Origin: Allobosea sp.
GTDB lineage: Bacteria; Pseudomonadota; Alphaproteobacteria; Rhizobiales; Beijerinckiaceae
Assembly: GCF_017308015.1 (NCBI RefSeq)
Contig: NZ_JAFKFW010000006.1
Coordinates: forward strand, 62,001-126,000
Direction: 5' to 3'
DNA: 64,000 nucleotides
The notes under the pieces were generated by a model. It saw nothing but the letters and a program-made list of their open reading frames with translations. It did not search any database and was not told where the DNA came from. A program made the position numbers and the translations under genes. This document shows positions 3,465-29,802 of the stretch, in pieces (the first letter of the stretch is position 1; every line of letters starts with the position of its first letter).

Positions 3465-4649
3465 TCAAACCTGTCCGAGCAGCAGCGCTTCGGTCGCCCG
3501 GCTGAGCAAGGGCGCGGCAGCGCCGTGAATTTCATAGAGATGGCTGGCTGGCACGCCGGCGAGATCGGGCACGGCAAAGCCGTCCATCGTGCCTTCCGCG
3601 CGGAACAGCGTGTTGAACCGCGCCCAGAGTTGCGGATTGGCGGAAAAGGGCCCGCTTACCCATATGCGAGCGGGAAAAAGCATGCGGCAGGCGTTTGCGA
3701 GCGCGCGCGAGAGCAACCCGGCCGCCATCTCGACACCGGGCAGTGCCAGCAGGTCGAGGCCGGCGAGCTGTCGGGCAAGTCGTACTTCGTCCTGGTCGAG
3801 ATCGGGCCAATGCCGGCGCAGCGTGGGAAGCAGCGACCAGAGCGCGGCGCCGGTTTCTAGGCAGGCGGTGTTGCCGCAGCCGCAGCGTCGTCCGTCCAGC
3901 GCCGTGAGCCGCCAATGGCCGATCTCGCCGAAGGAGCCTGTCGGCGCGAAGGGCTCGCCATCGACCGCATAGGCGAGGCCGACGCCCCAGCCCCAGTGGA
4001 GCAGGATCGTGCCGCCCGCGAAATTCTCGGGCTCGCGAGCGGCGCGAGCGCGCAATTCGGCATCGAGATTGCGGCAGATCGTGACCGGGCCCGCCACGGG
4101 TTCGAGGACGGATGCGATGTCGAGCCCGCGCATGCGCGGCCAGCGCGAGGCCAGAAGCCATTGGCCCTGCTTCAGATCGATCAGGCCGGAGAGCGAGACG
4201 GCCGTTCCGGCATGACTCATCCCCGGCGGCATCGCGTCGAGGAGGTCGCGTGCGAGCTCCGCCATCACGGCGGCGATCGCGGCATTGTCGGCATCGCCCG
4301 AGATGGTGCGGCGGCGTTCAGCGACGAGATGGCCGTTGAGATCGACCAGCGCGCCGGAGAGAGACTGGCTGGAGACATAGATGACGGAGGCGCCGATGCG
4401 GCGGGTATGCGCGACGAGGATCGCCGGGGGCCGCCCGCGTCCGCTCGCCTCACCGACGGCCTCGATGACGAGACGGCGCGCGATGAGGTCACCGACGACG
4501 CGCGAGACGCTGGTCGAACGCAACTGCAGGATGCGGCCGATATCGGCGCGGGAATGAGCTTCGCCGTTGAGGATCAGCCGGTAAATCCGGGCGCAGTCCC
4601 GGTCATGGGCGAGCGCGAGGCGGGTTTCGTCGAGCGTCAGCAGGGACAA
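3465..4649 (-). CDS. ROK-family transcriptional regulator (NagC/Mlc/XylR type)
   Basis: A 394-residue protein with an N-terminal winged helix (about residues 15-70, LQLRSTSVSRVVGDLIARRL) and a C-terminal ROK sugar-binding domain. The ROK zinc motif is present as RRCGCGNTACLETG (about residues 245-258). Members repress sugar uptake and catabolic genes and are released by a sugar or sugar phosphate. It is transcribed away from the nagB-like gene and lies upstream of the binding-protein/oxidoreductase genes, so it is the likely local repressor of both arms. In-frame stops lie just upstream, no ATG is near, and the start appears to be TTG at 4649. The ribosome-binding site is poor, so the start is uncertain. 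Confidence 0.85.
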   Translation of the reverse strand: MSLLTLDETRLALAHDRDCARIYRLILNGEAHSRADIGRILQLRSTSVSRVVGDLIARRLVIEAVGEASGRGRPPAILVAHTRRIGASVIYVSSQSLSGALVDLNGHLVAERRRTISGDADNAAIAAVMAELARDLLDAMPPGMSHAGTAVSLSGLIDLKQGQWLLASRWPRMRGLDIASVLEPVAGPVTICRNLDAELRARAAREPENFAGGTILLHWGWGVGLAYAVDGEPFAPTGSFGEIGHWRLTALDGRRCGCGNTACLETGAALWSLLPTLRRHWPDLDQDEVRLARQLAGLDLLALPGVEMAAGLLSRALANACRMLFPARIWVSGPFSANPQLWARFNTLFRAEGTMDGFAVPDLAGVPASHLYEIHGAAAPLLSRATEALLLGQV

Positions 4650-28044: not shown

Positions 28045-28521
28045 TTACTGCGTCAGCAGCGCGGTGCCGTAAAGGCCGATGGCGAAGAGCGTGTGGCTGA
28101 CGAAATTGAGCAGCCGAATCTGGTTTGCGTTCGGTTTCTTCGAGGCGGCGACGCCCATGCCCATGCCCGGCTGCAGGATGAACCAGCCGCAACCGATCGT
28201 CGCCCAGCCGACGATGAGCGCCGGCAGGAAGGTCGGATTGCGGACCCAGCCGGCGTCGGCGATCGCCAGCACGATTCCGGCGAAGGCGATGCCGACGAGA
28301 TAATGGCAGATCCAGCCGATCGCGAGCTCGCCGGCGACAGGTTCTGACTTCGCGATATCGTCATGCCAGACGCGCCCGCGCGGCAGATGGGCGAACCAGC
28401 GGCCGGGCATTGCCCAGTTCGGCTTGGGGAATCCGAAGAGGCGCAGGAACTGAGCCCAGATATCAGTGAGCGCGGTCGCTCCGACGCCGATGACGATCAT
28501 CCGCAAGATCAGATCCGCCAC
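28045..28521 (-). CDS. DUF2938-family membrane protein
   Basis: A 158-residue protein with four or so membrane segments: ADLILRMIVIGVGATALTDIW, GWICHYLVGIAFAGIVLAIAD, FLPALIVGWATIGCGWFILQPG and LNFVSHTLFAIGLYGTALL. The conserved DUF2938 elements are the N-terminal helix, the WFAHLPRGRVWHDDI loop and the QPGMGMGVAASKKPN loop. Function is unknown. I choose GTG 28521, which has GGGAGA six bases upstream and places the first membrane helix at the N terminus; an ATG at 28587 is in frame but has no site. Confidence 0.82.
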   Translation of the reverse strand: MADLILRMIVIGVGATALTDIWAQFLRLFGFPKPNWAMPGRWFAHLPRGRVWHDDIAKSEPVAGELAIGWICHYLVGIAFAGIVLAIADAGWVRNPTFLPALIVGWATIGCGWFILQPGMGMGVAASKKPNANQIRLLNFVSHTLFAIGLYGTALLTQ

Positions 28522-28707
28522 GTTCCATCTCCCGGCTGCATCGATGCGGTTCGCCCCTGTTGGAGCGGCGTTCGCGACGATGGTCAACCCGCCGCAATGA
28601 TCCGGTTACGCGCGGGCGGGCTGCATGAGGCGCATCGACCCGCGGGGGAACCGCGGCCGGTTCCGGGGGGTTGGCTCCGCTGATCCATGTCGAACAGGGG
28701 GAATACC

Positions 28708-29802
28708 ATGGCCACGGCAACCGCCGAGACGTCACGCAGCGCGGTCAAGGCTGCGACAGGGCCGCATGGCGCCGCCGAGCTGCCCTCCGTCGTGGTGACC
28801 AGCTACAATCTGGAAGTTCGCGACGAAGATGGTTTCGTCGGCGACAAGGCGAGCCGGGGCGCCTTCATCGAGCATCTCGATGCGCTGCGCGGCCATCTGA
28901 AGCGCAACGGCAACGATCCCCTGAAGGGCAAGACGGCTGAAATCGGTAAGAAGGAACTCGACGCGCTGCTGCAGGACGGCGATGCTCGGGAGGCCGTGCT
29001 CGTGCTCAGCGCCATCGAGGGCTTCGCACAATCTCTCGCCTTCGTCATCCGTCGCTTCACAAGGCTGAAGAGCTGGGCCGAGATCGAGCGCATCGTGGTC
29101 GGTGGCGGCTTTCGCGAGAGCCGCGTCGGCGAACTCGCGATCGCGCGTGCCGCGATCATTCTACGGGCCGACGGGCGCGATCTCGATCTTGTCCCGGTGA
29201 GCCATCATCCGGACGAGGCCGGGTTGGTCGGCAGCGCTCATCTCGCGCCAAAATGGATCTTCGAGGCTTATGACAGCCTCGTCGCCGTCGATATCGGCGG
29301 TTCGAACATCCGTGCCGGCATCGTCGAGCTTCGGCAGAAGAAGGCGCCCGACCTCAGCAAGGCACGGGTCTGGAAATCCGAACTCTGGCGCCATGCCGAT
29401 GAGGAGCCGAGCCGCGACGAGGCGATCAAGCGGCTGGGCAAGATGCTGCGCGAGCAGATCGGGGACGCCGGGAAGGCCGGCTTGCGTGTCGCCCCCTTTA
29501 TCGGTGTCGGCTGTCCGGGGTTGATCGAACCCGACGGCACCATCGATCGTGGCGCGCAGAACCTGCCCGGCAACTGGGAAAGCAGCCGCTTCAACCTCGT
29601 CAACAGCATCCGTGCGCTCGTGCCGGAGATCGGCGAGCACGAGACCGAGGTCGTGATGCACAACGATGCCGTGATCCAGGGGCTCAGCGAGATGCCGGCG
29701 ATGCAGGATGTCGAGAACTGGGCGGTGCTGACGATCGGCACCGGCCTCGGCAATGCGAGCTATCACAACCGTGCCAGGGCGAAGAGCAAGGGGCGCGATT
29801 GA
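28708..29802 (+). CDS. ROK-family protein with permuted motif order
   Basis: A 364-residue protein related to ROK sugar kinases, but with motifs in an unusual order. Residues 78-177 look like a ROK C-terminal lobe (DALLQDGDAREAVLVLSAIE, IERIVVGGGFRES, DEAGLVGSA). Only then come phosphate-1 (VAVDIGGSNIRAGIVE, 192-207), GVGCPGLIEPDG (267-277), the catalytic-type HND (318-320) and GTGLGN (344-349). The chain ends 15 residues later, about 100 residues short of a normal ROK end, and the zinc motif CxCGxxGCxE is absent. This order is what a circular permutation of the fold would give. ATG 28708 has GGGGGA upstream. Kinase activity and substrate cannot be judged. Confidence 0.82.
   Translation: MATATAETSRSAVKAATGPHGAAELPSVVVTSYNLEVRDEDGFVGDKASRGAFIEHLDALRGHLKRNGNDPLKGKTAEIGKKELDALLQDGDAREAVLVLSAIEGFAQSLAFVIRRFTRLKSWAEIERIVVGGGFRESRVGELAIARAAIILRADGRDLDLVPVSHHPDEAGLVGSAHLAPKWIFEAYDSLVAVDIGGSNIRAGIVELRQKKAPDLSKARVWKSELWRHADEEPSRDEAIKRLGKMLREQIGDAGKAGLRVAPFIGVGCPGLIEPDGTIDRGAQNLPGNWESSRFNLVNSIRALVPEIGEHETEVVMHNDAVIQGLSEMPAMQDVENWAVLTIGTGLGNASYHNRARAKSKGRD

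What the first reader, a model, noticed from the sequence alone, without database searches (positions are those of the whole stretch)
28708..29802. ROK-family protein whose motif order implies a circular permutation
In ordinary ROK kinases the order is DIGGT (phosphate-1), GxGxPG, ND, GTGxG, zinc Cys motif, a C-lobe helix with xGD.xA, then IVxGGGxS and DDAGLxGAA. Here the C-lobe set comes first (residues 78-177: LLQDGDAREA, IVVGGGFRES, DEAGLVGSA) and phosphate-1 (DIGGSN) only at 195-200; the chain ends 15 residues after GTGLGN. All ROK blocks except the zinc segment are present once, in rotated order, in one frame. I know of no described circularly permuted ROK protein.
Basis: partly seen in the sequence, partly recalled or inferred. 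Interest (0 to 1): 0.78.

Follow-up and report, generated by a model that had tools for sequence, protein, structure and literature searches.

The report
Rearranged sugar-kinase-like protein, conserved stress gene
A protein shared by many soil and root-nodule bacteria looks like a sugar kinase whose two halves are joined in swapped order, a natural rearrangement that I could not find described, and its gene may be switched on by the bacteria's general stress response.

Summary
Window 28708-29802 (+) encodes a 364-aa protein of a Bosea-like bacterium. Residues 191-349 match the first half of ordinary ROK proteins (model positions 5-139 of 303) and residues 81-182 the last third (207-301): the order is swapped. 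Rotating the family alignment turns two separate matches into one end-to-end match; of 33 cut points, those at 181-193 score best (132.5 at 184, 93.8 in native order). All 133 unique members scanned are swapped, none ordinary. Members cover most of the query in 80 kept genome loci and 204 plasmid records; five sampled genomes lie outside the class. No close ordinary-order relative appeared in 150 genomes. The new ends fall near the substrate loop. The zinc motif (0 of 133) and mostly ExGH (1 of 133) are gone, a conserved HGxxxLP...FxGD block stands there instead, and phosphate-binding and catalytic motifs are invariant. Best reading: a working circularly permuted ROK-fold phosphotransferase with an altered substrate site. 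A stress-type (EcfG-like) promoter motif precedes 44 of 45 Bosea-like copies. Substrate and activity are untested.

The parts
28647..28672 (+). Sigma-EcfG-like promoter motif GGAAC-N18-GTT
   Evidence: GGAAC-N16-18-GTT within 150 bases upstream in 44 of 45 Bosea-like members (window not counted) against 1.9% of 900 control stretches. Inferred, no transcript mapped.
28708..29802 (+). Circularly permuted ROK-fold protein, 364 aa
28708..28764 (+). Variable N-terminal tail (new N-terminus), residues 1-19
   Evidence: 12-37 residues before H20 over 133 unique members; pLDDT below 50 for residues 1-16
28765..28845 (+). Family-specific block HGxxxLP...FxGD (residues 20-46) at the place of the ROK substrate/zinc segment
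   Evidence: H20 132, L25 133, P26 131, F43, G45 and D46 132 of 133; no zinc motif in 133
28948..29253 (+). ROK C-lobe equivalent (residues 81-182), with GGG 132-134 and DxxGLxG 169-175
   Evidence: ROK HMM 207-301 of 303; profile-profile E 1.5e-7
29239..29277 (+). Join of the old C- and N-termini (about residues 178-190, HLAPKWIFEAYDS)
   Evidence: Rotation scan optimum at cuts 181-193
29278..29754 (+). ROK N-lobe equivalent (residues 191-349) with DIGGSN, GCPG, QNLPGNW, HND, GTGLGN
   Evidence: Pfam PF00480 positions 2-141; ROK HMM 5-139; motif residues invariant or nearly so in 133
29755..29799 (+). Variable, often basic C-terminal tail (new C-terminus)
   Evidence: 0-38 residues after residue 355; at least 4 Lys or Arg in the last 15 residues in 105 of 133
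28045..28587 (-). Divergent neighbour, DUF2938 protein (context)
   Evidence: PF11158 E 2.6e-57 in the window; a similar divergent ORF clusters in 25 of the 29 Bosea-type loci L041-L069

Best explanation
It is a natural circular permutant of the ROK (ASKHA-fold) sugar kinases. The old C-terminus is fused to the old N-terminus by a short linker, and the chain has been opened after GTGxG, inside the substrate/zinc region. The two lobes should still close around a nucleotide or polyphosphate, so it should transfer phosphate to a small-molecule acceptor, with Asp320 as base. The sugar-recognition residues (ExGH) and the zinc knot are replaced by a family-specific HGxxxLP...FxGD block, so the acceptor is probably not plain glucose bound in the classical way. 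In alphaproteobacteria the gene is probably transcribed by the general stress sigma factor EcfG, perhaps in a compatible-solute or trehalose setting. Shown by sequence: permutation, conservation, invariant catalytic motifs, promoter-like motif. Inferred: fold closure, catalysis, substrate, regulation.
For: Swapped order by HMM in the window and in all 133 unique members (85 of 86 by a stricter cut). The rotated family profile aligns ROK 5-301 end to end, and the rotation scan peaks at 181-193. A search with a rotated model finds the family as two abutting pieces in swapped order in 7 of the 7 genomes with strong matches among 150. One group on the tree, support 100/100. Catalytic and phosphate motifs invariant over 133 sequences: D195, G197, G198, C269-P270-G271, H318-N319-D320, G344-N349. 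The full model's nine best Foldseek hits are two-domain hexokinases over 396-441 columns, as expected if the match runs from the C-lobe of one domain into the N-lobe of the next (reading inferred). EcfG-like motif upstream in 44 of 45 Bosea-like and 15 of 37 other members; the motif GGAAC-N16-CGTT is in print for R. etli (PMC3892343, passage). Divergent otsB in 4 of the 7 plasmid regions that I chose to open.
Against: No solved structure; the full model is medium quality (pLDDT 80.4, pTM 0.68), and the isolated N-half gives no Foldseek hit at E <= 0.001. Pfam alone does not reach the N-half, and rotating the window protein did not lengthen its Pfam or NCBIfam matches. No activity or substrate data exist here. 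The strict motif GGAAC-CGTT is in only 18 of 45 Bosea-like upstreams; 49 of 50 Bradyrhizobium upstreams lack the GGAAC form and show only a G[CA]AAC variant that I defined after looking; 22 of 37 others lack it. The strict pattern is only modestly above its reversed control in the own genome (74 against 52). Related upstreams are not independent. Neighbours differ between genera.
Confidence: 0.72

Rival explanations
1. The C-terminal half is a ROK N-lobe, but the N-terminal half is an unrelated domain that only resembles the C-lobe (a fusion, not a permutation).
For: Pfam does not report ROK for the N-half at E <= 1, only FGGY_C at E 0.14; no significant Foldseek match of the isolated half.
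Against: Profile-profile E 1.5e-7 to the ROK segment 199-301 that the other half lacks, and one continuous alignment when rotated. 82 of 86 N-halves below 1e-4 against 0 of 516 controls. The weak FGGY_C match is itself to an ASKHA-fold C-terminal domain (fold assignment recalled).
Confidence: 0.04
2. Assembly or frame artefact, or a local gene rearrangement in this genome.
For: None found. One relative (G029) holds only fragments and one of two copies in G034 is split.
Against: Matched in 34 of 61 genomes, the window's own included, colinear over most of the query in the 80 kept loci of 536 confirmed stretches in named genomes, and in 204 of 72,556 plasmid records that hold at least 80% of it in one place.
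Confidence: 0.005
3. The permuted protein is not an enzyme but a sugar- or nucleotide-sensing regulator or pseudokinase.
For: The ROK family includes transcription repressors (passages of PMC12696579). ExGH and zinc motifs lost. Basic C-terminal tails in 105 of 133.
Against: No helix-turn-helix domain reported by Pfam in 13 members; the only regulator-type match is BTAD in one member at E 0.038. The catalytic Asp and phosphate motifs are invariant in 133 sequences, which is unusual for a pseudokinase.
Confidence: 0.2
4. A polyphosphate- or ATP-dependent glucose kinase with ordinary substrate, merely permuted.
For: Best partial matches of the N-lobe part are polyphosphate-glucose phosphotransferase (NF045942, E 1.5e-5) and the glucomannokinase 1woq (E 0.0012).
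Against: Those matches cover only the N-lobe; the glucose-binding ExGH and zinc residues are missing in nearly all members.
Confidence: 0.2

Closest known systems
ROK family kinases (Pfam PF00480; TIGR00744 glucokinases and PF00480 best matches used as the ordinary set)
   Same: DIGG(S/T)N, GxGxPG, ND, GTGxG, GGG and DxxGLxG blocks; alignable over ROK 5-301 after rotation
   Different: Order swapped in 133 of 133; zinc pattern C.C[GS]...C in 0 of 133 against 47 of 48 ROKs; E.GH in 1 of 133 against 46 of 48, and the looser E.[GA]H in 8 of 133 against 47 of 48; own HGxxxLP..FxGD block; long stem of 4.42 changes per column
Polyphosphate/ATP-glucomannokinase (PDB 1woq) and polyphosphate glucokinase NF045942
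   Same: Best partial match of residues 190-351 in the PDB and of the C-terminal half in NCBIfam
   Different: Only the N-lobe matches; ordinary order in those proteins
Two-domain hexokinases I and II (PDB 1dgk, 5hex)
   Same: Top Foldseek hits of the full model over about 400 columns, consistent with a C-lobe followed by an N-lobe
   Different: They are tandem duplications of ordinary-order domains, not permuted (recalled); TM only about 0.3
Other naturally permuted enzyme classes (circularly permuted type 2 ATP-grasp, name seen in a passage of PMC7701253; cpGTPases, recalled)
   Same: Same kind of evolutionary event
   Different: Unrelated folds (recalled)

Membership tests
ROK family (PF00480) | Score over the Pfam gathering cut-off | tested here: met
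   34 against 22.9 bits, residues 192-354 only; PF00480 matched at E <= 1 by 13 of 13 scanned members, best 1.1e-9
ROK family (PF00480) | Phosphate-1, catalytic ND, phosphate-2 motifs | tested here: met
   D195, G197, G198, N319, D320, G344, T345, G346, G348 in 133 of 133 unique members
ROK family (PF00480) | C-lobe with GGG adenosine block and DxxGLxG | tested here: met
   HMM and profile matches; G132-G134, D169 and G175 in 133, L173 in 132 of 133
ROK family (PF00480) | Linear order N-lobe then C-lobe | tested here: not met
   Swapped in 133 of 133 unique members, ordinary order in 0; 131 pass my first cut-off and the other two miss it only because their C-lobe match begins at model position 177 or 179
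ROK family (PF00480) | Sugar-binding ExGH motif | tested here: not met
   E.GH anywhere in the chain in 1 of 133 against 46 of 48 ordinary ROKs; E.[GA]H in 8 of 133 against 47 of 48
ROK family (PF00480) | Zinc motif CxCGxxGC | tested here: not met
   C.CG..[GSA]C in 0 of 133 against 43 of 48; C.C[GS]...C in 0 of 133 against 47 of 48
ROK family (PF00480) | Sugar kinase or sugar-responsive repressor activity | not testable with these tools
   No assay
General stress (EcfG) regulon gene | GGAAC-N16-CGTT-type promoter upstream | tested here: inconclusive
   Loose motif 44 of 45 Bosea-like, 1 of 50 Bradyrhizobium, 15 of 37 others; strict CGTT 18 of 45, 0 of 50, 12 of 37
General stress (EcfG) regulon gene | Expression dependent on EcfG or PhyR | not testable with these tools
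   Gene not found in the text searched (passages); supplements not readable

The most novel reading that the evidence does not exclude
The first natural circular permutant of the ROK/hexokinase branch of the ASKHA fold: opening the chain at the substrate loop let a new module (HGxxxLP...FxGD) replace the zinc and sugar-binding segment, making a stress-induced phosphotransferase with a new acceptor, kept across rhizobia and also found outside the Alphaproteobacteria.
Probability: 0.55. Interest if true: 0.75.

Novelty: new variant of a known kind. Interest (0 to 1): 0.62.

Why it matters
Natural circular permutation of a two-lobed hinge kinase is unexpected, because closing of the lobes runs through the chain crossings between them (recalled, general knowledge of the fold). 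A conserved, single-origin example shows that the fold tolerates new termini beside the active site and gives a defined system for testing how that changes substrate choice. Where annotated, these genes mostly bear the plain label 'ROK family protein' (22 of the 30 plasmid rows listed; one is called glucokinase, seven carry no annotation there), which hides the swapped order and the missing sugar-binding residues. A possible general-stress gene in root-nodule bacteria (R. etli, S. meliloti, Bradyrhizobium) is easy to test genetically.

Tried and rejected
Pfam and NCBIfam on the in-silico rotated window protein gave no longer match than the native one: single-sequence scans are too weak for the C-lobe half, so I used a profile of 48 ordinary ROKs. 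That set comes from the best matches of two family searches and is narrow; 11 of the 59 loci considered gave no usable chain by my motif filter and were dropped.

PHROGs: no match. Foldseek of the isolated N-half: no hit at E <= 0.001; ASKHA kinases such as MurK, glucokinase and pantothenate kinase are among the first 50, but so are unrelated proteins. I do not count it as support. The Foldseek tables give no alignment ranges, so the reading of the two-domain-hexokinase hits is inference.

Rejected: frame or assembly artefact; simple fusion; reading the gene as a normal glucokinase.

Searches for a described permuted ROK protein: (listings; one search listed 20 of 33), with passages seen in PMC1079889, PMC12696579, PMC6200981 and PMC7701253. 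None of these passages describes one; PMC1079889 says only that kinases of one fold group may be related by circular permutation. PMC1976428 was seen in the listing only. For regulation: (listings; led nowhere) and passages in PMC11387232, PMC6180224, PMC3616915 (no term found), PMC3892343, PMC8857273. The gene itself was not found in them. Most subscription journals and preprints were not searchable.

Dropped rows: the 133-sequence set came from 156 loci considered, 152 of which gave a stop-free protein, plus the window, with identical ones merged. In one search the minus-strand loci were read on the wrong strand; redid this.

Full report
What is there. The ORF at 28708-29802 (+) codes for 364 aa. 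The ATG follows GGGGGAA, and a G-rich run before the start is seen in many of the 30 first loci. The best named relative is a Bosea genome (92% identity), so the window is taken as Bosea-like; the assembly itself is unnamed.

Swapped order. Pfam ROK covers only residues 192-354, on profile positions 2-141 of 294 (E 2.9e-8). NCBIfam's N-acetylmannosamine kinase model weakly matches 104-180 to its own C-terminus, 212-286 of 288 (E 0.018). I built an HMM from 48 ordinary ROK proteins (303 positions). It places 191-349 on positions 5-139 and 81-182 on 207-301, so the first half of the protein carries the last third of ROK. In 133 of 133 unique members both halves match in swapped order and none is in ordinary order; an earlier count of 85 of 86 missed one because its match began just under my cut-off. 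N-halves alone match at i-E below 1e-4 in 82 of 86; of 516 shuffled or reversed N-halves, 7 fall below 0.01 and the best is 0.0011.

Rotation test. In native order the family profile (86 members) gives two separate profile-profile matches to ROK: 191-348 to 5-138 (E 3.9e-11) and 77-182 to 203-301 (E 6e-7). Rotated, it gives one match over 294 columns, ROK 5-301 (E 9.2e-16). Over 33 cut points on the 133-sequence alignment, the score is 93.8 for native order, 101-117 for cuts at 121-169, 129-133 for cuts at 181-193 (132.5 at 184), and 96.6 or less from 205 on. These E-values are for one comparison, not a database.

Conservation and spread. In a sample from the class, 17 of 385 genomes match, one of them only weakly and over the N-lobe. 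In a sample from the phylum, 42 of 398 match: 22 strongly (E 1e-109 or so, or better) and 20 weakly over the N-lobe only, as ordinary ROKs would; five of the 22 lie outside the class. With a rotated model, 27 of 150 genomes match: 7 hold the permuted gene as two abutting pieces in swapped order, and the other 20 give weak matches (best E 1.3e-7), read as ordinary ROKs. No close ordinary-order sister was seen there. A tree of 18 rotated members and 48 ROKs makes the permuted set one group (100/100, stem 4.42 changes per column, midpoint root); the long stem leaves its exact origin open.

Anatomy. Over 133 unique members (from 156 loci considered, 152 usable, plus the window), 68 columns are at least 98% conserved. 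They include residues of the DIGGxNxR, CPG, QNLPG-W, HND, GTGLGNA, GGG and D-x5-G blocks. The ROK zinc pattern C.C[GS]...C is in 0 of 133 against 47 of 48 ordinary ROKs, E.GH in 1 of 133 against 46 of 48, and E.[GA]H in 8 of 133 against 47 of 48. At their place stands H20-G-x-x-x-L25-P26 ... F43-x-G45-D46. The ends vary (12-37 residues before H20, 0-38 after residue 355) and have pLDDT below 50 in the model (residues 1-16 and 359-364). The old termini are joined by about a dozen residues (HLAPKWIFEAYDS).

Structure. The full model from 13 sequences has pLDDT 80.4 and pTM 0.68. Its nine best PDB hits are human hexokinases I and II, which have two tandem domains, over 396-441 columns with TM about 0.3. 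That is what a C-lobe followed by an N-lobe would give, but alignment ranges are not shown, so this is inference. A ROK repressor (5f7q) is at rank 16, E 9.2e-4. The N-half alone (45 sequences, pLDDT 76.9) finds nothing at E <= 0.001.

Regulation and neighbours. A GGAAC-N16-18-GTT motif, close to the sigma EcfG motif GGAAC-N16-CGTT in print for R. etli (PMC3892343, passage), lies within 150 bases upstream in 44 of 45 Bosea-like members (1.9% of 900 control stretches), 15 of 37 others (1.8% of 740) and 1 of 50 Bradyrhizobium loci. In Bradyrhizobium a G[GCA]AAC pattern, chosen after inspection, is in 49 of 50 (1.6% of 1000). The strict CGTT form is in 18 of 45, 12 of 37 and 0 of 50. An earlier count with a longer stretch and slightly different spacing gave 61 of 134, controls 2.4%. 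In the window it is 28647-28672. Related upstreams are not independent, and the strict pattern is only modestly above its reversed control in the own genome, 74 against 52. Neighbours: a divergent DUF2938 gene in Bosea; divergent otsB in R. etli CFN42, R. acidisoli, a Shinella and a Roseateles record flagged as of unverified organism; an osmoprotectant-type M42 peptidase in two S. meliloti strains; a ferritin-like gene on a Bradyrhizobium plasmid. I chose these seven regions from the listings.

Mechanism. Shown: permuted order, deep conservation, intact phosphate and catalytic motifs, altered substrate segment. Inferred: lobes close as in ROK kinases, Asp320 activates an acceptor hydroxyl, and the acceptor differs from the usual sugars because ExGH and zinc are gone. 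A link to stress and trehalose or compatible-solute metabolism is suggested by promoter motif and neighbours only. Roles of the ROK motifs are recalled knowledge of the family.

Known or new. It is homologous to the ROK family but fails three of its defining features (order, ExGH, zinc), so I call it a permuted variant derived from ROK rather than an ordinary member. I found no description of a permuted ROK in searches; the library lacks most subscription papers.

Noticed in passing
window 28647-28672 and upstreams of family loci: EcfG-type stress promoter motif; in the window it also holds the near-palindrome GGAACCGCGGCCGGTTCC.
   Followed up: partly
L225, L227, L228, L229: Trehalose-phosphatase otsB sits divergently beside the permuted gene in 4 of 7 plasmid regions looked at; in R. 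etli and R. acidisoli both lie near repABC.
   Followed up: partly
L034 (G024) and L035 (G012): Second, diverged copies (about 69-70% identity to the window protein) in genomes that also hold the main copy: paralogues with the same order.
   Followed up: no
G000:C4:65603-66361, i.e. about window 3603-4361, - strand: An ordinary-order ROK match (51.4 bits, profile 11-258) in a 403-codon frame, perhaps a ROK regulator.
   Followed up: no
G000:C23:83687-85752: Four exact GGAAC-N16-CGTT sites within 2.1 kb, perhaps the general-stress control locus.
   Followed up: no
L224 (NC_003078.1, S. meliloti 1021 pSymB): The held copy of this record carries one annotated feature in all, though the family member is intact; in strain ml28 it is annotated ROK family protein.
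   Followed up: partly
L071-L120 upstreams: 35 of 50 Bradyrhizobium copies share a CAACCAA-GGTTCC-type element before the gene instead of GGAAC, and 48 of these 50 loci hold divergent ORFs that look like ribosomal proteins L21 and L27 (names by eye).
   Followed up: partly
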